A DNA stretch of 64,000 bases from Lonicera japonica (lineage: Eukaryota > Streptophyta > Magnoliopsida > Dipsacales > Caprifoliaceae), in NCBI GenBank assembly GCA_021464415.1, contig CM038469.1, positions 24,385,901 through 24,449,900 of the forward strand, in the 5' to 3' direction. Shown here piece after piece: positions 26,836 through 59,600 of this stretch. Under the pieces are notes generated by a model. It saw only the letters and a list, made by a program, of their open reading frames with translations, was not told the DNA's origin and did not search any database. Each line of letters begins with the position of its first letter. Position 1 is the first letter of the stretch. The position numbers and the translations under genes were made by a program.

Positions 26836-29276
26836 ATGAGAATTGAACCAAGGTTCTTTGAACACCTCTCGGTGCCAATTGTCTTGCTTTTGTTACTACC
26901 TTACACCAAGCTTGTTCATGGAGTCACTTCAAGAGCGGGTAATGCTACTGAGATCAAGTGCATAGAAAGTGAGAGACAAGCTTTACTGAAGCTTAAACAC
27001 GGCCTTGTGGATGATTCCGGTCGTCTCTCTTCTTGGGGGACGAGCCACGAAGAAGATTGCTGCAAATGGAGAGGAGTCAAGTGTAGCAATCTCACCGGTC
27101 ATATAATCCTTCTTGATCTTCATGGTTCGACCGAAGGGTCTGATTCTCAGATACTCAGAGGAGAGGTTAGTCCTTCTTTACTTCAATTAAAGCATTTGAA
27201 CTACTTGGACCTTAGCTCCAACGAAATATCCGGGCAACTTCCTGATTTTTTTCAAATGTTGGCAACGGATGCAGAGAAGTTATTAGAATACTTGAATTTA
27301 GAAGGGAACCGATTTAGTGGTTCATTGCCCGATTTTACGAGATTTTCATCCTTGAGGGAATTGCGACTTGCTAATAACAAGTTAAATGGATCTTTCCCAG
27401 AAAGCTTTGGTCAAATTTCTAGTCTTGTTTTTCTTGACGTGTCTAATAACCAAATGATTGGGTCGCTGCCCGACCTAGAGTTTCTCCCTTCATTGAGAGA
27501 ATTTCACCTCGGAAGCAATAAGCTAAATGGGAGAATACCAAAAAGCCTCAGTCAGCTTTCTAAGCTTGAAATATTAGATGCCTCTTTAAACTCGTTTGAA
27601 GGTACAATCTCTGACGCCCACCTCTCAAACCTCTCAAAATTGAATAAGTTAGACTTGTCTTTTAACTCGTTGACTTTGGAAGTCGACTCTAGTTGGACTC
27701 CTCCTTTTCAACTACAGAGTATTTGGCTTGCGAACTGCCAGCTCGGGATTTATTTCCCTAGCTGGCTTCAATCTCAAAACAATCTTTCCATGCTTGATAT
27801 TTCGGGTGCTGGAATTTCTAGTACAGTACCTTCATGGTTTTGGGATCTCCCTGGAAGATTAACACACCTAAATATCTCTAATAACCAAATCCACGGCCTC
27901 ATACCTGATTTGACAAAAAAGTTTTTGGTAAGTTTGGGAATGTTAGATTTAAGTTCTAATCGTTTCATGGGCCCAATACCGTTAATTCCTCCAAATGTTA
28001 CATTAATTAACCTCTCCAAAAATCTGTTAACGGGTTCGGTTTCATTCCTATGCACAACTGGCAAACATTCTCTCATTGTAGTTGACCTCTCGGATAACAT
28101 ATTGTCAGGAAAGTTTCCTGATTGTTGGACGGAACATCAAACGCTAATCTTTCTCAGTTTGGCAAATAATAATTTCTCGGGGGAAATTCCAAGCTCCATT
28201 AGCCTCCTAATTCAGCTTCAAGTATTGCAGTTACGCAATAATAGTTTTGTAGGAGAATTGCCTTTGTCTTTGAAAAGTTGTAAGGAGTTGATGTTTCTTG
28301 ATTTGGGTTTAAACCATTTATCAGGAGAAGTACCGGCATGGATTGGAATGCACCTCAAAAAATTGATTGTTCTTAGTCTACGAAGGAATGAATTCTATGG
28401 AAGCATACCTCCTGAAATATGTCAGCTCAACCTTACTCAAATTTTGGACCTATCTCAGAATAATATATCGGGAAACATACCACTATGCTTCAACAAACTT
28501 GGTTCTTTAGTTGAAAAAGATATAGTTCAAACTATGATCTTTATGTGGGCTTTATCATTACTCATCGGGATCATGTTCGACATTTTGCTACGTTTTTCGC
28601 CAATGCATTAGTGCAATGGAAAGGAAAAGAGTCAGAATACGAGAATACTATACGGCTGTTAAAATGCATTGATTTATCTAGCAATAAACTAGTCGGAACT
28701 ATTCCCCCAGAATTTGCAAGTCTTGTGGAATTAGTTTCTCTAAATCTGTCGAGAAATAATTTGACTGGAAACATCATTCAAAAGATTGGTCAAATGAGAA
28801 TGTTAGAAACTATTGACTTCTCTAGAAACCATCTTTCAGGTGAGATACCGATGAGCCTTTCTAATTTGACTTTTCTCAGTGTCTTAGACTTGTCAAATAA
28901 CCATCTTTCGGGTAAAATTCCATCAAGCACTCAACTTCAAAGTTTTGATGCCTTTGCATATGCCGGAAACAACGAACTGTGTGGGAGTCCACTTCCAAGT
29001 AAGTGCCTAGGAGATCGAGCAGCTCCAGTTCCTTCATATGTCAACCATGGTAAAGACAGCAACAAACAAGACGACGAGGATATATTTATAACAACAGGGT
29101 TTTACATGAGTGTGACTCTCGGATTCGTTATTGGGTTTTGGGGATTTTGCGGTCCTTTATTGCTCCAAAGTTCGTGGAGATATTCATATTTCAAGAAGCT
29201 AGACAAGATAATAGACTGGATTTATGTGAAGGCAAAAGTGAAAAAGGCAAGCCTACAGAGGAAGCTTAGGAGCTAA
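26836..29276 (+). pseudogene. Receptor-like protein B (Cf/EIX2 class), one frameshift
   Basis: Chosen start 26836 (MRIEPRFFEHLSVPIVLLLL): it begins the hydrophobic signal peptide shared by all four loci; the ATG at 26752 only adds an unrelated leader. Then follow the N-terminal cap (CIESERQALLKLKHGLVDD, CCKWRGVKCSN), many 24-residue LRRs (LxxLxLSxNxxSGxIP type), and after the frameshift the last LRRs (LLKCIDLSSNKLVGTIPPEF), a C-terminal cap (NNELCGSPLPSKC), an acidic juxtamembrane stretch, one membrane helix with a GxxxG motif (GFVIGFWGFCG) and a short basic tail without a kinase. The family acts at the plasma membrane in pathogen or development signalling with SOBIR1-type kinases. A frameshift at about 28513-28520 closes the first frame at 28611; adding one A in GTTGAAAAAGATA would open the frame to 29276. 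Compared with RLP C about 190 residues of early LRRs are missing in frame. It could be a shortened functional gene if the indel is a sequence error. Confidence 0.8.
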
Positions 29277-29280
29277 TTGA

Positions 29281-30345
29281 TTGGTTAGTATATTACTTTT
29301 TTATTGACTTTCCGACATTAGCAAGTTTTGCTTTCTTGTTTTAATGTTCTCAATTTTTTCTTCTATTGAGTATGTAAATCCATTGTCTAATATATAATAT
29401 GCAATAAAGATATTCGTTCTAAAATGGAGCATTTACTTTAAAAAATGGTGAAAGTGATTGTTTTGAGAAACAAAAGTTATATTATGATGACAATTGACAA
29501 AGATATGCCATGTTACTTATATTTTTGTTTATTGTAGATCTTGATTCCAAGAATCAAGTGCATGTTTTCTTTCTAAGTTTGTGATGGCATATATAATAAT
29601 TTTAGGAGTCTTGCAAGAAGCTAGACAAGTTAATAAACTGGATCTATGTGATGGCAGAAGAGAAAAAGGCAAGCTTGTAAAGGAAGGTTTAGAGTTAATT
29701 AGCCGGTTAGTATCATCTTCCTATTTTATTCATTTTCCTATATTTGCAGGTTTTTCATTCTTGTTTAAATATTCTCATTTTTTTTTCCACTATTAGGTTT
29801 GAAATTCCATGCTGTGATAAATATTAATTACTCCTTAAGGATATTCATCCTAAAACTACATTATCATGTGATAAGGATATCTCATGTTACTTAGAATTTT
29901 GTTTATGGCAAATGCGGTTTCCAAGAATCAAATGTCTTCTTTCCGAGTTTGTGATGGCATACATACTGGTTTCGAGAGTCTTGCAAGAAGCTTATGTTTC
30001 AACTTCAACACTTTAGTTTATAAATTAAATATATTTCCTCTGGATTGCTTTTTCAGTACGTGTACTATGCAGCTTAAATATGCCTTTGAAAGGGTTATGT
30101 TTTGGCTAATATATATATATATGTGTGTGTGTGTGCATAACAACTATTTACCTTATAAATGTGCGTCTTAACTATACCTTGATGGCGCTCTACTATGTTG
30201 GTTGGAACTGGAAGAGTACATGCTTGTCGAGTTACTTTTTTGGCAAACTCTGTTGATTTTTAGCTTTTCAATCTTTGATAAAACATATCCAAATAAAGAA
30301 AAATAATAAAGATTTAAAGCAGAATTTTCAATTTCAATGTAATAA
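29281..30345. pseudogene. RLP B 3' flank with duplicated gene tails
   Basis: The end of RLP B is partly repeated: 29610-29705 re-encodes the cytoplasmic tail (KLDKLINWIYVMAEEKKASL then a stop), and the downstream phrase CCAAGAATCAA...TTTGTGATGGCAT occurs at about 29547 and again at 29918. The same downstream DNA follows RLP C at 56640-57010. A (TA)n(TG)n microsatellite lies at about 30106-30135. There is no independent gene. Confidence 0.6.
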
Positions 30346-41476: not shown

Positions 41477-42685
41477 ATGAGAATCAAACGAAGGTTCTTT
41501 GAACATCTCTCAGTGATAATTGTTTTGCTTTTGTTACTACCTTACACAAGGCTTGTTCTTGGAGTCACTTCAAGAGTGGGAGATGCTATTGAGGTCAAGT
41601 GCATAGAAAGCGAGAGACGAGCTCTACTTGAGTTTAAACACGGCCTTGTGGATGATTCCAGCCGTCTCTCTTCTTGGGGGACGAGCCACAAAGAAGATTG
41701 TTGCAAATGGAGAGGGGTTAGGTGTAGCAACCTCACCAGTCATACAACCCTTCTTGATCTTCGTGGTCCGGTCGAAGGGTCCGATTCTCAGATACTCAGT
41801 GGAGAGGTTAGTCGGTCTTTACTTCAATTAAAGCACCTGAACTACTTGGACCTAAGCTCCAATGACTTTGGAACCAAGTTCCCAGACTTCATTGGTTCGC
41901 TCACCAAATTGCAATTCCTGAATCTACACGATTCGAATTTTTACGGTCCAATTCCTCACCAGCTTGGGAATCTTACCAACTTGCTGTCTCTTGACTTGGG
42001 GTATAATAGCGGGCTCACTGTTAAAAACCTTCAGTGGCTTTCTCATATGCGTTTATAAGATACCTTGATTTAAGTACGGTTTCCCTAGAGAACACCAATT
42101 GGTTGCAACCTATAAGCATGCTCTCTTTCCTTACAGAATTGCGCCTCTCTTCCTGTAACATCCCAGGAAACGTATCTCTCTCGCATCCTTTGACTAATTC
42201 TTCTTCTATTGCTCTTACTATCATTGATCTGTCTTACAACTTATTCCATTCTTCTTTGAGTTATGACGGGTTGGTTTGCTTGAGTAGTAGTAGCCTTGTT
42301 GAACTTAAGATGCGTGGTAACCCTTTAGGACACTTGATTCCCAAGGCTTTTGGGAACTTGGTGTCTCTTGAAAAACTCGATCTTTCTTCTTGTAAACTTA
42401 GAGGTGAGATTCCAAAATCTTTTAGTAGACTGAGACATTTACACTCCTTTGAATTATCTTCCAATGAAATATCCGGGCAACTTTCTGAGTTTTTTCAGAC
42501 ATTGGCAACAAATGGAGAGAAATCATTAGAATACTTGGATTTAGAAAGGAACCAATTTAGTGGTTCATTGCCCGATTTTACGAGATTTTCATCCTTAAGG
42601 GAATTGCGACTTGCTGATAATGAAATGAATGGATCTTTCCCAGAAAGCTTTGGTCAAATTTCAAGTATTGTTTATCTTGATGTGA

Positions 42686-43914
42686 AAAGGGTGATTGAGC
42701 GGAGACTAAGAAAGGAAACCAGCATTTTAGATAATCAATTTGGTTTTATGCCCGGAAGGTCGACCATGGAAGCAATTTACTTGTTGCGGCGTTTGATGGA
42801 GCATTATCGGAGGGATCAAAAGGACCTACACATGGTTTTCATTGACTTGGAGAAGGCATACGATAGGGTACCAAGAGAGATTTTGTGGAAAGCCCTAGAG
42901 AAGAAAGGGGTTAGGATTGCCTATATTCGTGTTATCAAGGACATGTATGAGGGAGCTAAGACTAGTGTGAGAACACATAGTGGGTCCACTAAAGATTTTC
43001 CTATAACTATAGGACTACACCAAGGGTCAGCTTTGAGCCCTTATCTGTTTACCTTGGTCTTGGATGTACTCACGGAACACATTCAAGAGCCAGCACCGCG
43101 ATGTATGCTATTTGCAGATGATATTGTCCTAGTGGGTGAGTCCAGAGAAGAGCTAAATGGGAAGGTGGAAAATTGGAGACAAACTTTAGAAGCGCATGGC
43201 TTTCGTTTAAGCAGAAGTAAGACAGAATATATGGAATGCAAGTTCAGTAAAAGGCGGAGCACTCCTAACTTAGAGGTGAAAGTTGGGGACAATGTCATAC
43301 CACAAGTCACTCGGTTTAAGTATCTTGGATCCATTATACAAGAAGATGGGGAGATAGAGGGAGATGTAAACCACCGGATTCAAGCAGGGTGGTTGAAATG
43401 GAGGAAAGCTTCGGGTGTGTTATGTGATAAAAAAGTACCACTCAAGTTAAAAGGAAAATTCTATCGTACTGCGGTTAGACCAGCGATGTTGTATGGGACT
43501 GAGTGTTGGGCGGTCAAAAGCCAACACGAGAATAAACTTAATGTAGCTGAGATGAGAATGTTGAGATGGATGAGTGGCAAAAATAGGAAAGATAGGATCA
43601 GGAATGATACCATCAGAGAGGGAGTTGGGGTGGCATCTATTACAGAAAAGATGGTTGAATCTCGACTTAGATGGTTTGGGCATGTAGGGAGGAGACCAGT
43701 AGATGCCATGGTAAGGAGAGTTGATCATATGGAGGGAAGCCTAATTGTTAGAGGCAGAGGAAGACCGAGAAAAACTATAGGTGAAATTATTAAGAAGGAT
43801 TTAGAGGCAAATGGTTTCACTATAGATATGATTCACGACAGGCCACTATGGCATCGTTTGATCCATGTAGCCGACCCCACCTAGTGGGATAAAGGCTTGT
43901 TGTTGTTGTTGTTG
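42686..43914 (+). mobile_element. 5'-truncated RTE-type LINE with 18-bp TSD
   Basis: TTGTTTATCTTGATGTGA occurs at 42668-42685 and again at 43915-43932, precisely bracketing the insert. The open frame ends at 43884 ([11 protein letters not shown]) and the element ends in (TTG)n, the usual tail of plant RTE elements. It encodes the second part of a reverse transcriptase: [55 protein letters not shown] (catalytic ADD) and [12 protein letters not shown]. The endonuclease and the first RT motifs are missing, as expected from incomplete reverse transcription. The remaining ORF has no stops, so the insertion is probably young. It reads in frame from the upstream LRR sequence. Confidence 0.93.
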
Positions 43915-44600
43915 TTGTTTATCTTGATGTGACTAGGAACCAAATGACGGGTCCATTGCCCGACCTACAGTTTCTCCATTCATTGAGAGAATTGCACCTC
44001 AGAAACAATAAGCTAAATGGGAGATTGCCAAAAAGCCTCGGTCAACTTTCTAAGCTTGAAATATTATATGCCTCTTCAAATTTGTTTGAAGGTACAATCT
44101 CTGAAGCCCACCTCCAAAACCTCTCAAAATTAAAAAAAAATAGACTTGTCTTTTAACTTGCTGACTTTGGAAATCGACTCTAGTTGGACTCCTCCGTTTC
44201 AACTGGAGATTATTTGGCTTACGAACTGCAAGCTCGGGACTCATTTCCCTAGCTGGCTTCAGTCTCAAAATAATTTTTCCATACTTGATATTTCGGGTGC
44301 TGGAATTTCTAGTACAGTACCTACATGGTTTTGGGATTTCCCCCCAAGATTAACGTACACTACACCAAAACAGGAAATTAGTAACGGTCTATTTTTTGTA
44401 TTAGTAACGCACTAAGTCCGTTACTAGCCCGCAACGAGTAATGCCCGTTACAGACTTAAAAATGCCCATTACTAAATTTATTAATAATTTCTACTAATAT
44501 ATTTAGTCCAGTAACGGAAATTAAAATATTCAGTAATACTAAAAAACCGTTACTAAGTGTTTAATATTATTATTTATAATTAAATAATTATTTATCTTTA

Positions 44601-45026
44601 TTGATAAATCCCATAAAATTAAACTTTCCCCAAAATTTTCATTCTAGTTTCCGTTCCCTCTTCAATCTCAGACTCGCGCTCTCTCTTTTCCTTCACTCTT
44701 TTCACGCCTCCATCTCCAACACAACACCACGCCTCCATCTCCAACACCACGCCTCCATCTTCAACACAACACCACGCCATCGCTCCAACACAACCCTCTG
44801 TCAGACCTTTCTCCAACACAACCCCGATCCACCGTCATCTCCAACACAACCCCGATCCACCATCTCCAGCACGCTTTCGCTCTATCTCCATCACGCCACC
44901 GCACTTCCACACCAGCACACCATCGCTCCATCTCCACCATGCCACCGTCTTTGTTGCTGTGAGGTACTTCCTTTCCCCCTTTTTTTGCTTTGCCCTAATT
45001 TCGAAAAGGTGTGTATTTTGCCCTAA
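44601..45026 (+). other. C-rich leader repeat of CACTA arm
   Basis: The open frame present here (and identically in the other arm, 54544-54969 minus) results from a low-complexity CCTCCATCTCCAACACAACA-type repeat. It is more likely a 5' UTR or promoter-proximal region of the element than a protein gene. Confidence 0.5.
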
Positions 45027-46517
45027 TTTAAAAAAATTATGCTAGCTTATTCCCAAAATTATTCCCTAACTTCGGTTGTGTTTAAATATATGCTCCATCC
45101 CCAAACTCATTTAGATTTAGACCCAAGCTTACTGTCAAAAAATGAAACACACATATATATACATTTTAAAGTATGTGTGTTGCTAGTGTATGAGGTTAAT
45201 TATGTGCGTTGCTAATGACCCAAGTTTACTGTCAAAAAATGAAAGTTAAAATAAACAAAGAAACCATAAGAAATTTGGGGGTTCTATTAAAATTTGCTAG
45301 GTACCTGGTACTATCAGTCCCAAAATTTCATAACAGCAAACAAATAGCAATACTTCAACCAAAAGGTTTTAATAGGCCAGGAGACTACCTTAAGCACATA
45401 AACAGAACTTTGGGCAAAGCATACTGCTTGCCCCAAGAAAATTAATGATCATGGAATCACCATATAATTTCCTTGCATAGCTAACCTAAAGGTTTTAGTA
45501 TCATTTGTTTTCCAGGCTTATTTAACTCCCTTTGCCACTGGAGATAGCAAAGATTCACTAATTGAGTAATTAATATATTTTTTTATCATATTTGAGCAAG
45601 TAATATGCTAGTTAAGCACTTCATCTTCCCAAAAATATTGGTTATAAATGACAATTGGTGAGTTATTAAAGTATGCATGTGTAATGAGAGATAATGTGTC
45701 CATCCTTATTAGACCTAGAACAGTACTTGCTCATGTAAAACAGCTTTGAAAACCATTCTACAGAGTAGTTCTACTGAAGCCTTAGTTGCATTACATGAAA
45801 CTCCAAAAATCTGTTGTAACCCAATCTGACAGCAGATGGACAAGACATTTCCAGGGGTTGAAAAGAACTTAAAAATCTTCTATACTTGTGCAGGATTTGA
45901 AACAAAAAAAAAAGAATGATGTGGACAGTGAACCTAAATGCATCATAGCAACATTCAAAGCAGCAAGAGAAATAACTAAAATGTATTTTTCTTAATTACA
46001 TGGCCAGTGTTATTTTCAAAATATTTTTTTCATTAATTATATGGCTTTCTTAATACAAGGCTCTAAATAATAAATTAGACCCACATACATAACTAAAATG
46101 TACAATAAAATACACCTTGTTGTGAGAATAATGAATATCCAAACATACATCATATATAGTTATATAAAAGCTAGCTTTCTATTAACCCGGAAAAAAAGGG
46201 AAATAAAGTGGGAGATAGTCAAACCTGTAAATCTCTTGTGCAGAGCCCTTCCACCCTTTTCTATTAGTCAATAGTTTGTCACCCTTTTCTATTAGTAAAT
46301 AGTTTGTCATTATCATTGATTCATTGTACGATCAATTACTAGAATTAAGAATCCTACTTTCTATTGATAGAGTTTTATCATTCTATGTCAATGTCTGAAT
46401 ACTCCAACCTAAAAATATCTCTGTCGTTAAAAAAAAGAAGCTATAAATATATCTTTGGCAAATTCCTCTTATGTCACTTGAGTTATCTTTCCACCTCAAC
46501 TTCTCCAATCTCTTGAT

Positions 46518-46605
46518 ATGGCTTACTCTTCTTTTTCCAGCGCCAGCATACCAGTCCTGGCTCCCCAACCCTCCCATCCTTCTGACTCTGCTGCTTCTGC
46601 TACAG
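46518..46605 (+). other. Possible captured exon
   Basis: ATG at 46518 opens a frame (MAYSSFSSASIPVLAPQPSH, ending SAASATG) running into a consensus-like donor CTACAG|GTAACA at 46606. It resembles a first exon of a host gene but I do not recognise it. The inverted copy lies at about 52960-53048. Confidence 0.3.
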
Positions 46606-47588
46606 GTAACACAAAACTTGAGACTAAACTCTTTCTTTTCTTTTTTTCTTTTGGGAATACAAATCATTGTCATTATTTGGCCATAGTTAATAAATTTTAT
46701 TCTTTACTAATTCTTGTTGAAAACTGAAAATGTAAAAGTGATATATATGTTTAGTTTGAAACATAGGGATAGAGTATATGTAAAAGTGATATAAATGTAA
46801 AAGTGAATTCAACAGACTCGATTGACTCGATTGTGGGGGAGGGGAAACTAATTAGCTTATGAGGTTTCATTTCCTTGCTTGCTTATTGAAGACTAAATAT
46901 TTCGCTATTAAAATATCTATATATGTATGACTACAGTCCATCTGTAAAGTGTACTTTTGCTTGCGAACGATGCTTATATCAAAATGCATTTGGCGCTGGA
47001 AAATTCTTTAATGGCTTTCTACATGAGTATGTATAAGATGTAGTTACTAAAGACAACATATCAACCGAATACTACGTACCAAATTTTTATGTTTCATGTC
47101 CGAATTTCTTTTGTGCTATCTGTTCCCTTTGTTATATGTTGGTATTGTTTCATGTCCGAATTTCTTTTCTCCATCTCATGTTCATTTTAACGAGTAGATG
47201 TCCTCAATGCATCACTAATATTTTTTTGAAAAAAAAATTCTTCTTCATCCTCCAAAGAAATATTTTCCATGGAAAAAATCATAAAATAAGAGTTAATCTC
47301 TCCAACGTTGTGCACTATAATTAGCCTAGATGTACCACGTACCACTTGGTGTTCTGAGTGTACAGTGTTTTTTCATTAACTGAGGTAGGTACACTACCTG
47401 AGTAATATTTTAGTTAGAAGTAAATATATAGATAGTTATATATCCTGCTGCAACTATCTAGCATACAGCATTTGTAATCCTTTTCAGAGTTAATAAATTT
47501 AAATTCTTGGTTTCTTATTACAAAGAAAGGATACAAATTATATAATTCAGCACCTGCTGATCATGCATGCAACTAGCTAGCTAATTAA

Positions 47589-48428
47589 TTAATTATTAAT
47601 GAGAAAGTTGGGATAAAGCTTAGCGCAATAGAAATCAGTCAACTCGGGGCATAAAAACTTGAGGAGGAAGAGCACCCTCATAATTTGTGGTTCACTTATG
47701 TGTCTTTCCCCTTTGCATGTCCCTTCCAATATTGCCTTTGCACATGGCTCTGTACTCATTACTGGAAATGCATTTGCAATAGCCTGCAGCATGCCAATAT
47801 CATATGTATGGGTAGTGTTAACATGTGTATTTAGTGCCGTTAAGTACGCTATGAATGGAAAGAATTAGGTCTTGCATGATAACCTATGCTGTGCTTTTGT
47901 TATTTATATACTTAGGTTCTTATCATGTGCCCTTAGATAGTAATTAAGTATCGATAGTAATTAAGTAATTAATCAATACACTCGATCTATCTAAATAGAT
48001 AGTTGGCATGAGCTTAAATTAATTAAACTTACATCTTCTTGTTTTGTATCGACTTGGAGGACACCATCCTTTGTAAATTGCTTGCCTTTAACCATCTCCG
48101 AATCAATGAAGCCCAGCATATATATATATATATATATATATTTACTTGCCAATGCTGCTTTATATATATATTTAATATATATATATTAAACCTACCAATG
48201 CTGCTTTACTTGCCTGCATATATATATATATATATATATATTTAAATTGAACCCGATATATGACTACAGATGAAGAAGAATTGTGGCTTATCTTACGCTG
48301 TAGAAACCTGATGTAGGAGGGTGCAAGAGAGCAGCAGAGGAAGAGTTGACAACAATATTACCCTTGCTCTTTCGCAGGTGTGGTATTGCAAAGTGTGTCG
48401 GGTAAACTGATCCCCAAAAGTTTATGTC
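47589..48428 (-). pseudogene. Captured 11-beta-hydroxysteroid dehydrogenase-like exons (left arm)
   Basis: Three minus-strand exons in order. 48428-48297, between CAG and GTAAG, encodes a complete 44-codon SDR segment (DINFWGSVYPTHFAIPHL, then GNIVVNSSSAALL, the conserved serine region). About 48117-48033, ending at GTAAGT, encodes GFIDSEMVKGKQFTKDGVLQ. 47783-47589 after TGCAG encodes FPVMSTEPCAKAILEGTCKG, then FLLKFLCPELTDFY and the stop. These match plant 11-beta-HSD/steroleosin enzymes (short-chain dehydrogenases of seed oil bodies and brassinosteroid-related metabolism). The exon with the catalytic YxxxK and the N-terminal NAD-binding and anchor exons are missing, so no enzyme is made. 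It is a transduplicated fragment; the parent gene lies elsewhere. Confidence 0.85.
48121..48245. repeat. (TA)n-rich hinge, left
   Basis: Alternating TA runs separated by duplicated TTGCCAATGCTGCTTTA and ACCAATGCTGCTTTA phrases. The arm homology ends within this repeat at about 48208. Confidence 0.8.
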
Positions 48429-48439
48429 CTGCATACACA

Positions 48440-48673
48440 CACAAGTTTAAGAGTATTGATAATGAGCTAGATGAGCCGGTTATTCTTGCTTCTGAGGCCT
48501 CGCAAGTATTCTACTCTAGAGATCTTAAAAATCCAAGTTGGTGGGTTGTTATACATTCACCAAAGAGGTTGACGAGTCGAGTTAATGATTTAGAGATACC
48601 TACTGTCTTCCAATCAACAGTTGAAGATCAACCGCACTTGGAAAATTTATTGAAGTTATATGGCTCTGTGTAG
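48440..48673 (+). pseudogene. TNPD-type CACTA transposase, DUF4216 tail
   Basis: The frame reads FKSIDNELDEPVILASEASQ, VFYSRDLKNPSWWVVIHSPK and ends at TAG 48671-48673. The pattern VILASEASQVFY followed by a W-W segment is the DUF4216 region at the C-terminus of En/Spm TNPD transposases. Everything upstream (DDE catalytic region) has been replaced: the same strand just before 48440 is antisense to the captured dehydrogenase exon, which marks the breakpoint between captured DNA and transposon. Confidence 0.8.
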
Positions 48674-48905
48674 CTATCAAAGGAAATTTCCTTTTTTTTT
48701 TTGTTGCAAGACCTTTAACATTTCATGTTCAATTACTTGTTTTTTTAAGACCTTTTGATGTATGTCTTTTTATTAAGTTAAAATTTGTGGGTTATTGAAT
48801 TGCATCCCTTTTATGTTAAATTAATTGTACTAGTCAATTGAATTAATAATCTTATTTTTTAGTGTATATAATGTTATTTGTTTTCTATGGTAGGCACATT
48901 CAATT

Positions 48906-50490
48906 ATGTCAAGTGCAGGTAATTCACAGCAGCCATCACGCTTTTCAGCACCACAACCCTCGTCTCAATCATCGGGAACTGGAAAAGAAAAGGCAAAATT
49001 GCCTATTATTATCGGACCGACTGGGATTGTAGTTGGAGCCAATTCTAGGAAATGGAGTAACCGAGTTGGAGATTATGTAAGGTCTTGTATACCAGTGAAG
49101 TACTCGGATTTTAGACAAGTGCCCCAAAACTTTAAAGATGATGTTTGGCGCAACTTAATGGTAATCATCCTTTTAATAGTTAACTATATTAGATTTTATG
49201 TTATAATTTACTCAAAAATTTTATTATTACAGAATGAATTTGAACTTCCAATTCCCGAGGAGGTGGCTCGTCCTCAGTTGGAGAAAGGATGGTCCCAAAA
49301 ATTTAGGACATATAAATCCACATTACGTAAAGGTTTGCAAATTGAGATAGAGGAAGCTCCAAGAGGAATTGACCCAAATCATTGGAAAGAATTTACAGAA
49401 AATGAAAACAAGGCCAAAAAGATAGAGCAAAAGAAAAAAAATGCTGAAAATCGAGGGAAGCTGGAGTATTCTCATTGTCTTGGACGTTATTCTTACGCGG
49501 CGAAAACACACGAGATGGTATTTTTATGTGGTTATGTTAAATTTTATACTTTGTCATTATTGGTTCTTATGAAATATATTTATAATTGTAGGAAGAAGCC
49601 ATGCCCGAAAATCCAATTGATAGAGTTGATGCATGGTTGGCGGGTCATCAGAAAGAAGATGGGACTGTGTTACCTAGCGCTAAGCCATTATATGTAAGCA
49701 TTACTCAATATTCTTCTAACTTTTAATTACAAAAATACCTATTAACTCTTGTATTTATTCATAGGATCAAGTAAAAGAAATTAAGACTAAAAGAAAAAGT
49801 GGAGAGGATGGCTCTAGTAGCACAATTGAAAATGATGGGTTGACCCAAGTTTTTGGAAAGGACATGAAAGGACGACTTCGTGGGGTTGGATCTCACATTT
49901 CGAAGAAGCAAATGGTCATTGTAGAGATTGAAAAGGCAAAGGGAGTGGCAAAGAATAAGGAAAAAACAAAAGATGATGCCTTTAAGGATGAAGTGATGGC
50001 ATCCGTTCAATCACAAATGCAAACGATTAATGCAGATTTCAAGAGTGATCTCATGCTTTCAATGCAAAATTTACTTCAATCTTTCATGAATGGTGCAAAG
50101 GAAAGTTCCCCACCGGTGGTGGTGACTCCTCGAAGCGACTTAGGCTCCAATTCAGTCCATCGCCCACCTAATATAATTCAAAACTTGGATAATTGTTTTG
50201 CTGGTGCATCTCGCCCCTTATCGAGTCCTAATCCCTCTAACAAACCTCCCGTTATCTTACTTGATAAATATTATAAAGAATTGGCTGTCGGGCATGTTGT
50301 GACAGATGCATCGGCTACGATATGCCACGGAAAAAAGGTTAGTCCTTGTGAAAAGAAGGTTTGGGTAGAGGAGGTAATTGAGCCCGATGCAGCTTTGTGG
50401 GATGCTCCTCAAGATGGTCATCACACTTTGTCCGCTTACGTCTCCGGGGGCTATTTAGTTTGGCTAGACAGTTTATTGAAATATCTTTAG
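48906..50490 (+). CDS. Transposase_24 (Ptta/En/Spm) protein, intact
   Basis: Four exons, 48906-49160, 49233-49517, 49592-49693 and 49765-50490, each a multiple of three, joined by GT-AG introns of about 72-74 nt; total 455 residues. The protein has a Ser/Gln/Pro-rich N-terminus, the core KWSNRVGDYVRSCIPVKYSD, then PKNFKDDVW-like PQNFKDDVWRNLM, GWSQKFRTYKSTLRKG, NPIDRVDAWLAGHQKEDGT and LTQVFGKDMKGRLRGVGSHI, followed by a Lys/Glu-rich coiled stretch. This is the plant Transposase_24 family, the accessory DNA-binding protein (TNPA/TNP1-like) of CACTA elements. It is uninterrupted, and the start is the first ATG in frame after an upstream stop. It could still bind subterminal repeats of related elements. 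Confidence 0.85.
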
Positions 50491-50775
50491 TACGAATTTT
50501 TTTGAGAAGTATGTTTAGTTTTGCTTGATGGATTTGCTCTTTATGTATTGAACTTTATATGTATGCTTGAATATTTTGGTACTTAGTATTTGCTCTTTAT
50601 GTATTGAACTTTATATGTATGTTTGAATATTTTGGTATTTAGTATTTGGACATTTTAATTGTTTATATAGAGTGATTTGATTTTATAGTGTATGGTTTTA
50701 TGATTGTTTGAGATTGCGTACATTTTGGTACAGGGCGGAATTGGGGATAAAAAAAAAATATATTTTTTTAATATA

Positions 50776-51135
50776 TGTTAATAGTAACGGTAAAAAACCG
50801 TTACTGGCATCAGTAACAGTTACCATTATTGTTGTGTTATTGGTGTTAGTAACGCTTAAAAAGCGTTACAATTATAAATTTAAAATAAAAATATAATAAA
50901 AATAGTAACGGTCTTTTTATTATAGTAATGGGTAAAAAGCGTGACTAAAATGAGGCCTGTAACGGTTTTTATCCGTTACAGAAGTATTATAGTAACGGGT
51001 AATTTATATTTTTAGTAACGCTTATTATCTGTTACTGGTCCAACTGCCACGCCTAAATAGTAACGGATTTTTTGTGTTACTGAAATTTTTAGTAACACAG
51101 AAAGCATGTTACAAAACACCTGTTTTGGTGTAGTG
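50776..51135. repeat. 3' subterminal repeats and CACTA terminus
   Basis: At least ten copies of AGTAACGG, AGTAACGC or the reverse CCGTTAC, several arranged as short hairpins (GTAACGG-T-rich-CCGTTAC), followed by the terminus ending GGTGTAGTG at 51135. These are typical transposase-binding subterminal repeats. Confidence 0.85.
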
Positions 51136-51277
51136 GTTTAATATATATATATTAAATATATATATTAAATATATATATATTAAATATATATATATTAAAT
51201 ATATATTAAATATATATATATTAAATATATATATATTAAATATATATATTAAATATATATATATTAAATATATATAT
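51136..51277. repeat. TTAAATATATATA minisatellite at the inversion hinge
   Basis: About nine tandem copies of a 12-16-bp unit TTAAATATATATATA between the inner CACTA end and the start of the inverted right arm. It is longer than the matching AT repeat in the left arm. Confidence 0.85.
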
Positions 51278-54200
51278 AAAGCAGCATTGGTAGGTTTAAT
51301 ATATATATATTAAATATATATATAAAGCAGCATTGGCAAGTAATATATATATATATATATATATATGCTGGGCTTCATTGATTCGGAGATGGTTAAAGGC
51401 AAGCAATTTACAAAGGATGGTGTCCTCCAAGTCGATACAAAACAAGAAGATGTAAGTTTAATTAATTTAAGCTCATGCCAACTATCTATTTAGATAGATC
51501 GAGTGTATTGATTAATTACTTAATTACTATCGATACTTAATTACTATCTAAGGGCACATGATAAGAACCTAAGTATATAAATAACAAAAGCACAGCATAG
51601 GTTATCATGCAAGACCTAATTCTTTCCATTCATAGCGTACTTAACGGCACTAAATACACATGTTAACACTACCCATACATATGATATTGGCATGCTGCAG
51701 GCTATTGCAAATGCATTTCCAGTAATGAGTACAGAGCCATGTGCAAAGGCAATATTGGAAGGGACATGCAAAGGGGGAAAGACACATAAAGTGAACCACA
51801 AAATTATGAGGGTGCTCTTCCTCCTCAAGTTTTTATGCCCCGAGTTGACTGATTTCTATTGCGCTAAGCTTTATCCCAACTTTCTCATTAATAATTAATT
51901 AATTAGCTAGCTAGTTGCATGCATGATCAGCAGGTGCTGAATTATATAATTTGTATCCTTTTCTTTGTAATAAGAAACCAAGAATTTAAATTTATTAACT
52001 CTGAAAAGGATTACAAATGCTGTATGCTAGATAGTTGCAGCAGGATATATAACTATCTATATATTTACTTCTAACTAAAATATTACTCAGGTAGTGTACC
52101 TACCTCAGTTAATGAAAAAACACTGTACACTCATAACACCAAGTGGTACGTGGTACATCTAGGCTAATTATAGTGCACAACGTTGGAGAGATTAACTCTT
52201 ATTTTATGATTTTTTCCATGGAAAATATTTCTTTTGGAGGATGAAGAAGAATTTTTTTTTCAAAAAAAATATTAGTGATGCATTGAGGACATCTACTCGT
52301 TTAAAATGAACATGAGATGGAGAAAAGAAATTCGGACATGAAACAATACCAACATATAACAAAGGGAACAGATAGCACAAAAGAAATTCGGACATGAAAC
52401 ATAAAAAATTTGGTACGTAGTATTCGGTTGATATGTTTGTCTTTAGTAACACATCTTATACATTACTCATGTAGAAAGCCATTAAAAGAATTTTTTTCCA
52501 GCGCCAAATGCTTTTGATATAAGCATCGTTCGCAAGCAAAAGTACACTTTACAGATGGACTGTAGTCCATACATATATAAGATATTTCTAATAGCGAAAT
52601 ATTTAGTCAAGGAAATTCAAACACCATAACGCAAGCAAGGAAATGACCCTCCCCAACCTCAAAATCAAAGCTAAATTAGTTTCCCCTCCCCCACAACGAG
52701 TCAATCGAGTCTGTTGAATTCACTTTTACATTTATCCATCAAACTTTTACATATACTCTATCCCTATGTTTCAAACTAAACATATATAATCACTTTTACA
52801 TTTTACATGTCAATTTCAACAAGAATTAGTAAAGAATAAGAATTTTTATTTTACACTATGGCCCATTTGTAAAATACAATGAAATTAACTACAATGATTT
52901 GTGTACCTTCCCAAAAGAAAAAAAGAAAAGGAAAGAGTTTAGTCTCAAGTTTTGTGTTACCTGTAGCAGAAGCAGCAGAGTCAGAAGGATGGGAGGGTTG
53001 GGGAGCCAGGACTGGTATGCTGGCGCTGGAAAAAGAAGAGTAAGCCATATCAAGAGATTGGAGAAGTTGAGGTGGAAAAGATAACTCAAGTGACATAAGA
53101 GGAATTTGCCAAAGATATATTTATAGCTTCTTTTTTTTTAACGACAGAGATATTTTTTAGGTTGGAGTATTCAGACATTGACATAGAATGATAAAACTCT
53201 ATCAATAGAAAGTAGGATTCTTAATTCTAGTAATTGATCGTACAATGAATCAATGATAATGACAAACTATTTACTAATAGAAAAGGGTGACAAACTATTG
53301 ACTAATAGAAAGGGTGGAAGGGCTCTGCACAAGAGATTTACAGGTTTGACTATCTCCCACTTTATTTCCCTTTTTTTCCGGGTTAATAGAAAGCTAGCTT
53401 TTATATAACTATATATGATGTATGTTTGGATATTCATTATTCTCACAACAAGGTGTATTTTATTGTACATTTTAGTTATGTATGTGGGTCTAATTTATTA
53501 TTTAGAGCCTTGTATTAAGAAAGCCATATAATTAATGAAAAAAATATTTTGAAAATAACACTGGCCATGTAATTAAGAAAAATACATTTTAGTTATTTCT
53601 CTTGCTGCTTTGAATGTTGCTATGATGCATTTAGGTTCACTGTCCACATCATTCTTTTTTTTTTTTGTTTCAAATCCTGCACAAGTATAGAAGATTTTTA
53701 AGTTCTTTTCAACCCCTGGAAATGTCTTGTCCATCTGCTGTCAGATTGGGTTACAACAGATTTTTGGAGTTTCATGTAATGCAACTAAGGCTTCAGTAGA
53801 ACTACTCTGTAGAATGGTTTTCAAAGCTGTTTTACATGAGCAAGTACTGTTCTAGGTCTAATAAGGATGGACACATTATCTCTCATTACACATGCATACT
53901 TTAATAACTCACCAATTGTCATTTATAACCAATATTTTTGGAAGATGAAGTGCTTAACTAGCATATTACTTGCTCAAATATGATAAAAAAATATATTAAT
54001 TACTCAATTAGTGAATCTTTGCTATCTCCAGTGGCAAAGGGAGTTAAATAAGCCTGGAAAACAAATGATACTAAAACCTTTAGGTTAGCTATGCAAGGAA
54101 ATTATATGGTGATTCCATGATCATTAATTTTCTTGGGGCAAGCAGTATGCTTTGCCCAAAGTTCTGTTTATGTGCTTAAGGTAGTCTCCTGGCCTATTAA

Positions 54201-55212
54201 AACCTTTTGGTTGAAGTATTGCTATTTGTTTGCTGTTATGAAATTTTGGGACTGATAGTACCAGGTACCTAGCAAATTTTAATAGAACCCCCCAAATTTC
54301 TTATGGTTTCTTTGTTTATTTTAACTTTCATTTTTTGACAGTAAACTTGGGTCATTAGCAACGCACATAATTAACCTCATACACTAGCAACACACATACT
54401 TTAAAATGTATATATATGTGTGTTTCATTTTTTGACAGTAAGCTTGGGTCTAAATCTAAATGAGTTTGGGGATGGAGCATATATTTAAACACAACCGAAG
54501 TTAGGGAATAATTTTGGGAATAAGCTAGCATAATTTTTTTAAATTAGGGCAAAATACACACCTTTTCGAAATTAGGGCAAAGCAAAAAAAGGGGGAAAGG
54601 AAGTACCTCACAGCAACAAAGACGGTGGCATGGTGGAGATGGAGCGATGGTGTGCTGGTGTGGAAGTGCGGTGGCGTGATGGAGATAGAGCGAAAGCGTG
54701 CTGGAGATGGTGGATCGGGGTTGTGTTGGAGATGATGGTGGATCGGGGTTGTGTTGGAGAAAGGTCTGACAGAGGGTTGTGTTGGAGCGATGGCGTGGTG
54801 TTGTGTTGAAGATGGAGGCGTGGTGTTGGAGATGGAGGCGTGGTGTTGTGTTGGAGATGGAGGCGTGAAAAGAGTGAAGGAAAAGAGAGAGCGCGAGTCT
54901 GAGATTGAAGAGGGAACGGAAACTAGAATGAAAATTTTGGGGAAAGTTTAATTTTATGGGATTTATCAATAAAGATAAATAATTATTTAATTATAAATAA
55001 TAATATTAAACACTTAGTAACGGTTTTTTAGTATTACTGAATATTTTAATTTCCGTTACTGGACTAAATATATTAGTAGAAATTATTAATAAATTTAGTA
55101 ATGGGCATTTTTAAGTCTGTAACGGGCATTACTCGTTGCGGGCTAGTAACGGACTTAGTGCGTTACTAATACAAAAAATAGACCGTTACTAATTTCCTGT
55201 TTTGGTGTAGTG
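51278..55212 (-). repeat. Right arm of giant inverted repeat
   Basis: Inverted copy of 44358-48208. Outer terminal sequence is identical to the left end. Indels include an altered stretch at 52600-52870 and extra bases in the dehydrogenase exon near 51770-51800. Confidence 0.9.
51368..51898 (+). pseudogene. Captured HSD-like exons (right arm)
   Basis: Plus-strand copies of the last two exons of the captured dehydrogenase: GFIDSEMVKGKQFTKDGVLQ from about 51368 to a GTAAGT donor near 51453, and the terminal exon from about 51704 (FPVMSTEPCAKAILEGTCKG) to the stop at 51898. Extra bases near 51774-51800 change the middle of the exon relative to the left arm. The 44-codon SDR exon is not in this arm. 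Confidence 0.85.
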
Positions 55213-56622
55213 TATCTCTAACAACCAGATCCACAGCTTAATACCTGATTTTAAAACGAAGTTTTTGGTTGGTTTGGAAGTGTTAGATTTAAGTTCTAAT
55301 CGTTTCATGGGCCCAATACCGTTAATTCCTTCAAATGTCACATTCATTAACCTCTCCAAAAATATGTTAACGGGATCAATTTCATTCCTATGCACAACTG
55401 GAAAATATCAGGAGAGTTTGGTTAACCTATCGGATAACTTATTATCAGGAGAGTTTCCTGATTGTTGGACGGAAGATCAAGCACTAATCTTTCTCAATTT
55501 GGCAAACAATAATCTCTTGGGGAAAATTCCAAGCTCCATTGGCCTCCTAACCCAACTTCAAGTATTGAATTTACGCAATAATAGTTTCACAGGAGAACTG
55601 CCTTTGTCTTTAAAGAGCTGTAAGGAGTTGGTGTTTATTGATTTGGGTTTAAACAATTTATCAGGAGAAGTACCGGGATGGATTGGATTGCACCTAAAAA
55701 AATTGATTGTTCTTAGTCTGCGAAGGAACAAATTCTATGGAAACATACCCCCAGAAATATGTCAGCTCAACCTTACTGAAATTTTGGACCTCTCTCAGAA
55801 TAATATATCAGGAAACATACCAATATGCTTCAACAAACTTGGTTCTTTAGTTGAAAAAAGATGTTTCAAAACTATGATTTTTATGTGGGCTTTATCAAGA
55901 TTTATCAGCATCATATTTGTCATCTTATTAAGTTTTTAGCCAATGCATTAGTGCAATGGAAAGGGAAAAGAGTCAGAATACGAGAAAACTTATACGGTTG
56001 TTGAAAAGCATTGATTTTTCTAGCAATAAACTTGTAGGAACTAACTATTCCACCAGAATTTGCAAGTCTTGTGGAATTAGTTTCACTGAATCTGTCGAGA
56101 AACCAATTTGACTGGAAATATCATTCAGGAGATTGGTCAAAATGAGAATGTTAGAATCTATTGACTTCTCTAGAAACCATCTTTCAGGCGAGATACCGAT
56201 GAGCCTTTCTAATTTGACTTTTCTCAGTGTCTTAGCTAGACTTGTCAAATAACAGGCTTTTGGGTGAGATTCCATCAAGCACTCAACTTCAAAGTTTCAA
56301 TGCCTCTTCGTATGCTGGTAACCGCGAACTTTGCGGCCTTCCCCTTCAAAGTGCCTAGGAGATGGAGCAGCTCCAGTTCCTCCATCTGTCGACCATGGTA
56401 AACAACAATAATCAAGAAGATGAGGATAGGTTTATACAAACTGGGTTTTACATAAGTGTGACTCTTGGATTCATTATTGGCTTTTTGGGATTCTATGGTC
56501 ATTTACTGCTCCAAAGTTCATGGAGATATTCATATTTCAAGAAGCTAGACAAGATAATAGATTGGATCTATGTGACGGCAAAAGTGAAAAAGGCAAGCCT
56601 GCAGAGGAAGCTTAGGAGCTAA

Positions 56623-59600
56623 TTGGCCCGGTTAGTATCTTCTTGTTTTATTTATTTTCCTATATTAGCAAGTTTTGCATTCTTCTTTAAATAATCTTAA
56701 TTTTTTTCTTCTATTGGGTATGTAAATCCATTCTCTGATATAAATAATATGTGGTAAAGCTACATTATGATGAAAAGGATATGCCATGTTACTTATATTT
56801 TTGTTTATGGCAGATGCTGATTCCAAGAATCAAGTTCATGTCTTCTTTCCGAGTCTGCAATAGTAGACATACTCGTTTCGGGAGTCTTGAATGAAGCTTC
56901 TGTTTCTACTTCAACTCTTTAGCTTATAAATTAAATGTACTTCCTCTGGATTATGTTTTAAGTACTGTGTTCTATGCAACTTGAATGTGCCTTTCAAAGG
57001 GTTGTGTTGTGGATAATATATATACACATATATATGTATATAGCTAGGATATAAAAAGGGATTCCATCACTTTAGCAAAAAGAAGAGATTCCCATTTAGG
57101 GGGGGGTAAATTAATGAATTATTTTTTTGAAATTTTGTAGAGATGATCTATATTATGAAATAGATCATATCCACCAAATTTTCATTAAAAAAATTCAAAA
57201 TAGAAGTAGGTGTGATGATCATAAAAAATTCAATAACCGAAAATGCGCATATATTTCAATTGTTCAATACACCACTTCTAGGTTGATTTTTTTTTTTTAT
57301 GAAATTTGGTGGAGTTGATCTACTCACTATATATATAATATCATCTCCCCACAATTTTTATTTTTTTAAAAAAATAATCTATTTATCCCCTCCAAATAGG
57401 CATCTATTCTTTTAGCTAAACTGAGGAAATCCCTTCTTTATAATATAACTCTATATATATGTGTGTGCACAACAACTATTTAGCTTATAAATGTGGATCT
57501 CAACCGTACTTTGATGGCGCTCTATTGTGTTGGTTAGAAACTGAATGAATAAATGCCTGTTGAGTTAATTTTTAGCAACTTGTGTTGATTTTTTTAGCTT
57601 TTCATTATTTGATAAAAGGTTTCCAAATAAAGAAAATTAACGGAGATTTAAAGAAGATATTTTCAATGAGGGGGGTTTTTACATACTATGCTATATCCGT
57701 ATTAATAGAAAGGAAAAAAAAATACAAAGTCGCCTGTAATTAAGTTTTTTCTATATAAAAAAACTTAAAATAAACTAATATGATACAGTGAAACTTACTA
57801 ACAAGGGAAACAATAGTCCCCTCTAATTGTAAAATTTTGGTCTTTTTTACCTTATTCCCCTTGAAAAATAAAAAAATATGCATATATTAACAATTTTTGT
57901 GCCCCCCCCCCCCCCGGGATAATAGCGGTAGAAATTTTACTCTTCTTTTCAAATTCGGTTTTGATTTTGTGTCTCTCTGTAATTTTACCCTAACCGAAAC
58001 AAAAAACACCTATAATGTGTATTTATTGTTTTTTGAGGGGGCAAACTCAAAGTTAAATGTTTTCTGTACATCATTTAGAATCTTAAACTTATAACGTAGA
58101 GTATTTAAGTATTTTCGTTTATATAAAATGGTTACCCTTTTGTCGAAAAACTATTTATTTGCTAGTGCATACTACTGTTTTGAGAATTTGTACTACTATA
58201 TACTTTTTAAGCTGTAAATTTAAGTGATAATAGAAAATGCTTACTATACATGATTTTTTATTATGAATGAACCTCTAAAAGCAAAAAAGGTAGAAATAGA
58301 AAATGCAAATTAATAAATAAGAATCAAGACTTGTCCGCAATGGTAGAGTTATATCATAAATTGGATGCATTATTATTTTTTCACTTAATAAGGATCAAGA
58401 AAAAAATATCTATGGATTCAATAAAAAATATAAAGAAGAGTAAATGATATAATAATTCGTTACAACTAAAATTTAGTATCTAATACATTTCATTATTATT
58501 TTCCTTATTAAGGGTCAATTAAGGAACAAGTTTTGGATTCAATAAATTAATATGCAACATGTTCACCTTTAATTCAAGATGCAAGATTAATATTCCAAAC
58601 CAGCAAAACTACCTACTTGTTAAATATTAATGAAGCAATGCTGATGAACAAAATATATATGCTACACATTCTACACAAACACCAGATCATATATACAAGA
58701 CCAGTCCTTCAATAATAAAATTTAGCTCTCGAATAACCAAAGCTAGCAATATCTTTGGCTAATCAAAAGTGGTGAAACCTGCCTCCTATTCCATCTTTAT
58801 CAGTTTTCGCATCCAAGGTTGGGCGATATTTATTTCTCTCTCCACCATGGATCATATATTGTCCTGGGCTCCCATTGTGGTCTTTGTTTTCAATTAGTTT
58901 TTGCTTAGTCTTTATTATATCATTAAGACAATTTGTTCAAGATCCATATACCTCATGTTCTGAATAAAAAATATCTCCAAAAAATTTTAGGAAAAAAAAT
59001 TATTCATTTACCCTTCGAAATGAATTGTCTTTATTGTTATTTAAGTAAGAGATTTCCTTACAATAGTATTTCCTATATACATATAATAAAACAAATAGAG
59101 CCTACCAAAAATTTTCATTTATATACCCTCCTTATACCTCACATGCCATGCACATGGGCAAAAAAACGTTTAAATTAAATTTTAACCCCGTCAATGAAAA
59201 TGGGTCAATTGTAATAAATTGAGTAGTTGGTGACATTAATTGTAAACATTAGTATCTCATATGGTAAGAGTGCTAATAGAATTATGGTTGAGAGTTGTGA
59301 AATGCACTTTACCTAATAGAAATTATAAAAGTACATGTGACGTATTGCCAAAACAAATATTAATGAATAAAACACGTGTATCATGGCTAGTTTGAACAAA
59401 TAGCAAAACATGCAGACCACGTGCACTTTACATGCAACAAGTTCTATGTCTTTGATGGGTCATCAATTCCCTAATTAACGGATGATGGTGGACTTCGAAA
59501 GAGACCCATCAGTGGGTTTTTTCGGGGAAGAAAGAGAGGTCCTTCCAAGAAATTTACTCAAAATTATAAGGTACGTACAACAACCACGTACTAATATTTA

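What the first reader, a model, noticed from the sequence alone, without database searches (positions are those of the whole stretch)
44358..55212. Giant palindromic Pack-CACTA: an element fused to an inverted copy of its own 5' half
Outer ends are identical 5' CACTA termini in opposite orientation, with ~3.9-kb arms around a ~3.1-kb spacer and a third CACTA end (3' terminus) internal at 51135. Transcription through it would make a multi-kilobase hairpin RNA. By architecture (known: Mu killer, an inverted partial duplication of MuDR that triggers heritable silencing) this is a candidate silencing locus for a CACTA family. It sits inside a receptor gene whose promoter-side DNA could drive read-through. 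The silencing role is inference.
Basis: partly seen in the sequence, partly recalled or inferred. Interest (0 to 1): 0.88.

Follow-up and report, generated by a model that had tools for sequence, protein, structure and literature searches.

The report
Palindromic gene-carrying CACTA transposon in honeysuckle
A jumping gene that had picked up pieces of host genes landed in a plant receptor gene and apparently then gained a backwards copy of its own front half, a layout like a known maize transposon-silencing locus, but no silencing has been shown here.

Summary
Window 44358-55212 (Lonicera; figures fit L. japonica 'Sijihua') is an inverted repeat: arms 44358-48245 and 55212-51249, spacer about 3.0 kb, both outer ends the same 5' CACTA end, the 3' end inside at 51135. 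Part A (44358-51135) is a non-autonomous derivative of a 16.3-kb C3 element that encodes Transposase_21. A keeps an open four-exon Transposase_24 gene. The arms carry pieces matching three host gene loci, so 'Pack-CACTA' is fair. An empty site about 250 kb away reads ACGTA|CTTAAA|TATCTC: the insert replaced 6 bp and has no outer 3-bp duplication. Scars shared by both arms show descent from one private copy. Best explanation: A inserted normally, then a break beside its 3' end was repaired with an inverted copy of its 5' half. The layout matches maize Mu killer. Caution: part of the right arm and right flank carry insertion-type long-read errors, so reads spanning the locus are needed.

The parts
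44358..51135 (+). Element A: non-autonomous CACTA element, 5' end 44358, 3' end 51135
   Evidence: Terminal 17-mers at both ends; collinear with C3:21765977-21749660, which has TSD ACA/ACA
44358..48245 (+). Left arm
   Evidence: Inverted match to 55212-51249; closest match after the right arm is C3
51249..55212 (-). Right arm: inverted copy of A's 5' half, 5' CACTA end at 55212, no CACTA end at its inner side
   Evidence: 0 GTAACG motifs in 51136-51735 against 6, 10 and 6 in the three true 600-bp ends
51136..51324 (.). Junction J2 and expanded AT tract (about 12.8 copies of a 15-bp unit) between A's 3' end and the right arm
55213..55218 (+). Junction J3: 5' CACTA end joined to the receptor gene at TATCTC; TA shared with A's 5' flank
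   Evidence: empty site
44352..44357 (+). Junction J1, AACGTA; last 3 bases GTA are the candidate target duplication
48906..50490 (+). Open Transposase_24 (TnpA-like, by recall) gene; exons 48906-49160, 49233-49517, 49592-49693, 49765-50490; 455 aa; introns GT..AG (predicted, no transcript)
   Evidence: PF03004 E 1.1e-20, 74.6 bits against cut-off 28.7; 99% over 79% to a Lonicera macranthoides protein
48350..48673 (+). Remnant DUF4216 end of the lost transposase ORF
   Evidence: PF13952 E 1e-06, 29.6 bits, just below cut-off 30.6; deletion joint 48441-48444 against C3
47167..48300 (-). Captured short-chain dehydrogenase gene piece, genomic spacing of two coding frames kept; mirrored in the right arm up to the AT tract
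   Evidence: 91.2% over 1,165 columns to L050, C1:57776500-57783500; source frame hits adh_short E 7.6e-09
46006..46782 (+). Captured segment shared with other copies; 46463-46782 matches beside a B3-like frame in a C8 cluster
   Evidence: B3 E 9.2e-05, below cut-off
45292..45843 (+). Captured segment adjoining a coding frame of an ARF-GAP (AGD6/AGD7-like) gene, probably mostly intron
   Evidence: 94.6% to L056, C2:9778500-9783000; source frame named by homologues
47149..47167 (+). Private deletion of about 300 bp, patched with a short copy of nearby sequence, shared by both arms
   Evidence: C3, C4 and the C1 gene have about 300 bp more here; sequence
51777..53158 (.). Right-arm stretch rich in extra bases (probable uncorrected long-read errors)
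42025..43884 (+). Receptor LRR region interrupted by reverse transcriptase
   Evidence: RVT_1 E 1.4e-33 and LRR hits; 41765-44357 also present in the empty copy L061/L059

Best explanation
Element A, a non-autonomous CACTA carrying host gene pieces and a Transposase_24 gene, inserted into an LRR receptor pseudogene with the usual 3-bp duplication (GTA). Later a double-strand break, probably an aborted transposase cut, opened at or just outside A's 3' end. Seven to nine bp of flank were lost, counting the second GTA. The break was repaired with an inverted copy of A's 5' half, perhaps started at the 5' end through TA microhomology. It ran to the AT tract, which expanded by slippage, and was joined to A's 3' end. 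The product is a Mu-killer-like palindrome with two 5' ends, able in principle to make a long hairpin RNA. Shown: anatomy, empty site, missing target bases, descent of both arms from one private copy, gene pieces. Inferred: the break, the direction of copying, the order of events, the slippage. Untested: any RNA or silencing.
For: Arms and ends. Both arms share 65 differences from C3 (57 substitutions, 8 indels), against 2 left-only differences. Both share a deletion of about 300 bp and an AT tract that C3 lacks. No other copy with this structure was seen among the scored candidates (40 of 1,538). Empty site ACGTA CTTAAA TATCTC with an identical left flank over 895 bp, the last base being the element's first C. 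TA at J3 is shared with A's 5' flank. The inner end of the right arm has no terminus and no subterminal motif. C3 shows that a normal copy of the family keeps a 3-bp duplication. Flank loss and filler DNA at excision sites are common in rice (94 excisions; passages of PMC4423477).
Against: Microhomology at J3 is only 2 bp (about 1 in 16 by chance). The GT after A's 3' end fits the start of a GTA duplication, but fits equally well as part of the copied tract, whose unit reads GGTTTAAT, so a second duplication around A is not established. A 4-kb filler is far longer than the 1-123 bp fillers in rice. The right arm (51777-53158) and right flank (55854-57997) carry insertion-type errors, so support by several reads is not assured. 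No reads were available.
Confidence: 0.6

Rival explanations
1. The palindrome formed elsewhere and moved here as one 10.85-kb unit with two 5' ends, losing target bases on insertion.
For: Both outer ends are intact and exact at the termini.
Against: No 3-bp duplication at the outer ends and 6 bp missing. No second copy of the arm structure among scored candidates (40 of 1,538). The 5' and 3' ends differ beyond the first 17 bases, so a two-5'-end unit is unusual; whether it can transpose is untested.
Confidence: 0.16
2. Two separate insertions: a second CACTA copy lay at the site in reverse and A inserted into or next to it, with later deletion.
For: Tail-to-tail order of two elements; CACTA ends are common (160 exact).
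Against: Both arms share the patched deletion of about 300 bp, the AT tract and 65 differences from C3, so they descend from one private copy. A deletion ending exactly at A's 5' end would also be needed.
Confidence: 0.08
3. Assembly artefact: the right arm is a misjoin or chimera.
For: Insertion-biased errors in 51777-53158 and from 55854 to at least 57997, while 2,594 bp on the left (41765-44358) show 1 substitution and 1 missing base against the empty copy. The assembly (886 Mb against an estimate of 817 Mb, heterozygosity 0.74%) probably keeps second haplotypes (PMC9130202 passages).
Against: No N in the window. The stretch with J3 (53159-55853) has 2 right-only single-base deletions, one three-way difference and no right-only insertion; J2's AT tract cannot be judged. 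A fold-back read would continue into the left flank, not the right one, and would have no 3-kb single-copy spacer. The right junction is exact at a CACTA end within the same receptor gene. Read N50 is 29,096 bp, longer than the locus.
Confidence: 0.16

Closest known systems
Mu killer (maize MuDR derivative)
   Same: Internally deleted element, partial inverted duplication, both ends from the same element end, next to host genes (PMC3440606 passages)
   Different: CACTA, not Mutator; the duplicated half carries host gene pieces, not the transposase gene; a full 3' end is kept inside; silencing not shown here; the hinge is assembled here, while the centre of Mu killer resisted sequencing in that paper
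Pack-CACTA elements (Arabidopsis, rice, maize)
   Same: CACTA ends, captured pieces from several loci, non-autonomous (PMC8903248 passages)
   Different: Keeps a Transposase_24 gene and a transposase remnant, so the packFinder rule might file it as derived from an autonomous element; palindromic; no outer TSD
En/Spm deletion derivatives (class recalled)
   Same: Internal deletion removing transposase sequence, ends and subterminal repeats kept
   Different: Added inverted copy of the 5' half
Filler DNA at transposon excision sites in rice
   Same: Flank loss plus filler DNA (PMC4423477 passages)
   Different: Filler of about 4 kb beside a retained element, against 1-123 bp at excision sites

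Membership tests
CACTA (En/Spm) superfamily | CACTA terminal inverted repeats with subterminal repeats | tested here: met
CACTA (En/Spm) superfamily | A family relative encodes Transposase_21 (TNP2-like) | tested here: met
   C3 relative: PF02992 E 4e-45, with PF13963, PF13960, PF13952; A itself lacks that 5.1 kb
CACTA (En/Spm) superfamily | 3-bp target site duplication at the outer ends of the 10.85-kb unit | tested here: not met
   6 bp missing, no duplication. Hence the whole palindrome is not filed as one ordinary CACTA insertion; its part A is
CACTA (En/Spm) superfamily | 3-bp target site duplication around part A, and in a relative | tested here: inconclusive
   GTA left, GTT right of A, the right one possibly part of the AT tract; C3 relative has ACA/ACA
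Pack-CACTA | Captured host gene fragments between the ends | tested here: met
   Matches to SDR, B3-like and ARF-GAP-linked loci; the B3 hit is below its cut-off
Pack-CACTA | No transposase match over 250 bp (packFinder rule, PMC8903248) | tested here: inconclusive
   No Transposase_21 in 15 frames of A scanned, but Transposase_24 gene and DUF4216 remnant present; packFinder was not run
Mu killer-like silencing locus | Inverted partial duplication with two same-type ends | tested here: met
Mu killer-like silencing locus | Hairpin or antisense transcript and small RNAs | not testable with these tools
   No RNA data available
Mu killer-like silencing locus | Dominant heritable silencing of related elements | not testable with these tools
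   Needs crosses

The most novel reading that the evidence does not exclude
A natural hairpin locus born in one repair event. Its small RNAs would silence not only its CACTA family but also, through the captured pieces in both arms, the host short-chain dehydrogenase gene cluster on C1. There, 548 21-nt positions of one locus (229 in two coding frames) match both arms exactly.
Probability: 0.15. Interest if true: 0.78.

Novelty: new variant of a known kind. Interest (0 to 1): 0.52.

Why it matters
The best-known case of a transposon locus that silences its own family by an inverted duplication is, as far as I recall, Mu killer, whose centre resisted sequencing in the study seen here (PMC3440606 passages). 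Here an empty site, a larger relative, both junctions and the private scars can all be read, so a formation route can be written down and tested. If it is transcribed, it would also link gene capture by transposons to silencing of the source genes. It looks young (2 substitutions between the arms outside one ragged stretch and the three-way sites), so it could be tested in living honeysuckle plants.

Tried and rejected
Rejected: chance repeat; simple fold-back read (flanks and spacer differ); independent second insertion (shared private scars). Rfam found no family in the window at gathering scores (0 matches). Ten arm frames (8 left, 2 right) gave no Pfam hit at E 0.1, and of four left-arm frames only one had a weak hit, below cut-off; gene content came from genome comparison instead. 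Paper searches: captured-gene hairpins, 2 papers held; Lonicera with CACTA, 5 held; CACTA with hairpin and siRNA, 44 held, 20 listed; inverted duplication and gap repair, 13 held, 11 listed; CACTA and alternative transposition terms, 363 held, 15 listed. None of those listed describes a palindromic CACTA by title or start of abstract; nothing wider is claimed about print. A genome-wide pattern count of 5' ends did not complete; the small survey replaces it. The duplicate about 250 kb away was only sampled; for more did not complete. Papers read as passages only: PMC3440606, PMC4423477, PMC8903248, PMC9130202; all others seen as search listings.
Full report
OBSERVATION. Self-BLAST of the window shows an inverted repeat 44356-48245 / 55214-51249 (97.1% over 3,981 columns, 9 mismatches, 46 gap openings), with a 3,003-bp spacer. 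The 17-base end CACTACACCAAAACAGG stands at 44358 (+), and its complement ends at 51135 and 55212. The ends at 44358 and 55212 continue identically (5' type); the one at 51135 continues differently (3' type). GTAACG-type subterminal motifs number 6, 10 and 6 in the three 600-bp ends, 0 in 51136-51735, and 5 in 52,000 other bases. So there are three true ends and one truncated inner end.

HOST. The window is G000:C7:24385901-24449900 of an 886,079,548-base genome in 967 sequences. Of 17 hits of the Transposase_24 protein, 16 are from Lonicera macranthoides and 1 from Iris pallida. The lengths of C1 (116,908,140) and C4 (79,566,881) and the number 967 equal the longest scaffold, N50 and scaffold number printed for L. 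japonica 'Sijihua'. The totals printed there (886,131,823 for scaffolds, 886,040,423 for contigs) differ slightly from the total held here (PMC9130202 passages). That assembly used PacBio reads of N50 29,096 bp, Canu, SMARTdenovo and three Pilon rounds; heterozygosity was estimated at 0.74%.

WHAT ELEMENT A IS. A (44358-51135) is collinear with C3:21765977-21749660, a 16.3-kb element with TSD ACA/ACA. C3 encodes Transpos_assoc, Transposase_21, DUF4218 and DUF4216 and has a 4.2-kb insert inside its Transposase_24 gene, apparently another element. A lacks 5.1 kb that hold the Transposase_21 frame, with the joint at 48441-48444. It keeps a DUF4216 remnant just below the Pfam cut-off (29.6 against 30.6 bits) and an open four-exon Transposase_24 gene of 455 aa, exons predicted by eye. 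The genome holds 160 exact copies of the 17-base end (74 forward, 86 reverse; control 0). The best long spacer relative is 98% (C4:54087116-54089800; 42 matches in all, 40 of 446 candidates scored).

CAPTURED GENES. Searching 45050-48100 against the genome gave 56 matches (40 of 1,538 candidates scored). They include groups of loci outside the two C3 and C4 elements: C1:57.39-57.79 Mb (short-chain dehydrogenase; PF00106 E 7.6e-09 in one source frame), C8:22.08-22.27 Mb (B3-like; E 9.2e-05, below cut-off) and C2:9.78 Mb (beside a frame of an AGD6/AGD7-like ARF-GAP gene). The spacing between two dehydrogenase coding frames is kept, so capture was probably at the DNA level. That the source resembles 11-beta-hydroxysteroid dehydrogenase-like plant proteins is recalled; PDB matches by sequence were SDR-type enzymes (33 sequences, best E 1.8e-05).

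EMPTY SITE. C7:24680300-24682000 (L059) matches 43464-44358 at 100% over 895 bp (the last base is the element's first C) and 55213-56017 with no mismatch and 4 gaps, contiguous and without the element. Its sequence there is ACGTA CTTAAA TATCTC. So the 10.85 kb replaced CTTAAA, with no outer 3-bp duplication. Further out, 41765-43463 matches at 99.9% (1 substitution, 1 missing base), and 58000-63900 matches in pieces at 96-99% with length differences. This second copy, about 250 kb away, is either a recent segmental duplicate or a second haplotype kept in the assembly; I cannot tell which. The receptor copy was already interrupted by a reverse-transcriptase fragment; matching sequence is in both copies.

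HOW THE ARMS ARE RELATED. With C3 as outgroup: 65 events are shared by both arms (57 substitutions, 8 indels), 47 are private to the right arm (22 insertions, 4 deletions, 21 substitutions), 2 are private to the left (1 substitution, 1 deletion) and 4 are three-way, one of them the cut end of the aligned block. Of the 21 right-only substitutions, 20 lie in one ragged stretch (left-arm coordinates 46650-47060). Outside it, by my count from that listing, 14 right-only events remain: 11 insertions, 2 deletions, 1 substitution. Both arms share a deletion of about 300 bp patched with a short nearby copy (47149-47167) and an AT tract that C3 lacks. They therefore descend from one private copy, recently.

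QUALITY WARNING. Extra bases in the right arm (51777-53158) and right flank (55854-57997: 4 extra bases in the first 805 bp of flank, then 26 extra, 6 missing and 6 substituted in 1,980 bp) look like uncorrected PacBio errors. The paralogue at 27873 sides with the empty copy at all four of the first sites. The left flank is clean, and the spacer against C3 has 46 mismatches and 5 gap openings in its two blocks. The right-arm stretch 51407-51776 has no right-only event. The stretch 53159-55853 with J3 has 2 right-only single-base deletions and 1 three-way difference. The AT tract at J2 cannot be judged. I read the errors as polishing failure where a cleaner second copy attracted the short reads (inference); the left flank also has such a copy yet is clean, which this does not explain. 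The number of reads behind the right half is unknown.

FORMATION. After A's 3' end the window reads GT and then the AT tract. GT fits the first two bases of a GTA duplication (GTA stands on A's left), but fits the tract unit GGTTTAAT as well. At J3 the bases TA are shared with A's 5' flank. The right arm ends in an AT tract expanded to about 12.8 units. I infer: normal insertion of A; a later break at or just outside its 3' end; loss of 7-9 bp; inverted copying of the 5' half; slippage in the AT tract; rejoining. The order, the direction and the polymerase step are inference.

FUNCTION. The layout is that of Mu killer: internal deletion, inverted partial duplication, two same-type ends (PMC3440606 passages). 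In that paper silencing went with antisense transcripts starting inside the locus, and read-through sense transcripts went with no silencing, which speaks against read-through from the receptor as the driver. Here 3,191 of 3,850 21-mers of the left arm occur in both arms. After a low-complexity filter, 548 21-nt positions of one C1 dehydrogenase locus (L050) match both arms exactly, 229 of them in two coding frames; the ARF-GAP-linked locus has 154 and the B3 locus only 6. A hairpin could thus hit the CACTA family and the dehydrogenase gene. No RNA data were available; silencing remains a hypothesis.

UNIQUENESS. Among 36 terminal 5' ends of the 48 matches (40 of 224 candidates scored), this is the only head-to-head pair within 40 kb. 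The fuller pattern search did not complete.

Noticed in passing
window 27425-29412 and 43915-44354 / 55213-56762: Tandem LRR receptor paralogues at 87-88%; besides the 99% copy, six further copies at 82-86% lie along C7:24.66-25.07 Mb.
   Followed up: partly
C7:24678600-24683960 (L061, L059, L060): Near-identical second copy of the region about 250 kb downstream; retained haplotype or fresh segmental duplication.
   Followed up: partly
window 55854-57997: Run of extra bases against the clean copy, likely uncorrected long-read errors; the left flank has a second copy too yet is clean, which is unexplained.
   Followed up: partly
L017 (C3:21751426-21755608): A 4.2-kb foreign insert splits the Transposase_24 gene of the C3 relative; the one open frame scanned gave no Pfam hit.
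   Followed up: no
L053 (C4:55087200-55091200): A locus carries the B3-linked segment at 92% and a frame that resembles C3's transposase by eye (not scanned), so that capture may predate element A.
   Followed up: no
P0001 (Lonicera macranthoides protein): 99% identical over 79% to the Transposase_24 protein, suggesting recent activity of the family across the genus.
   Followed up: no
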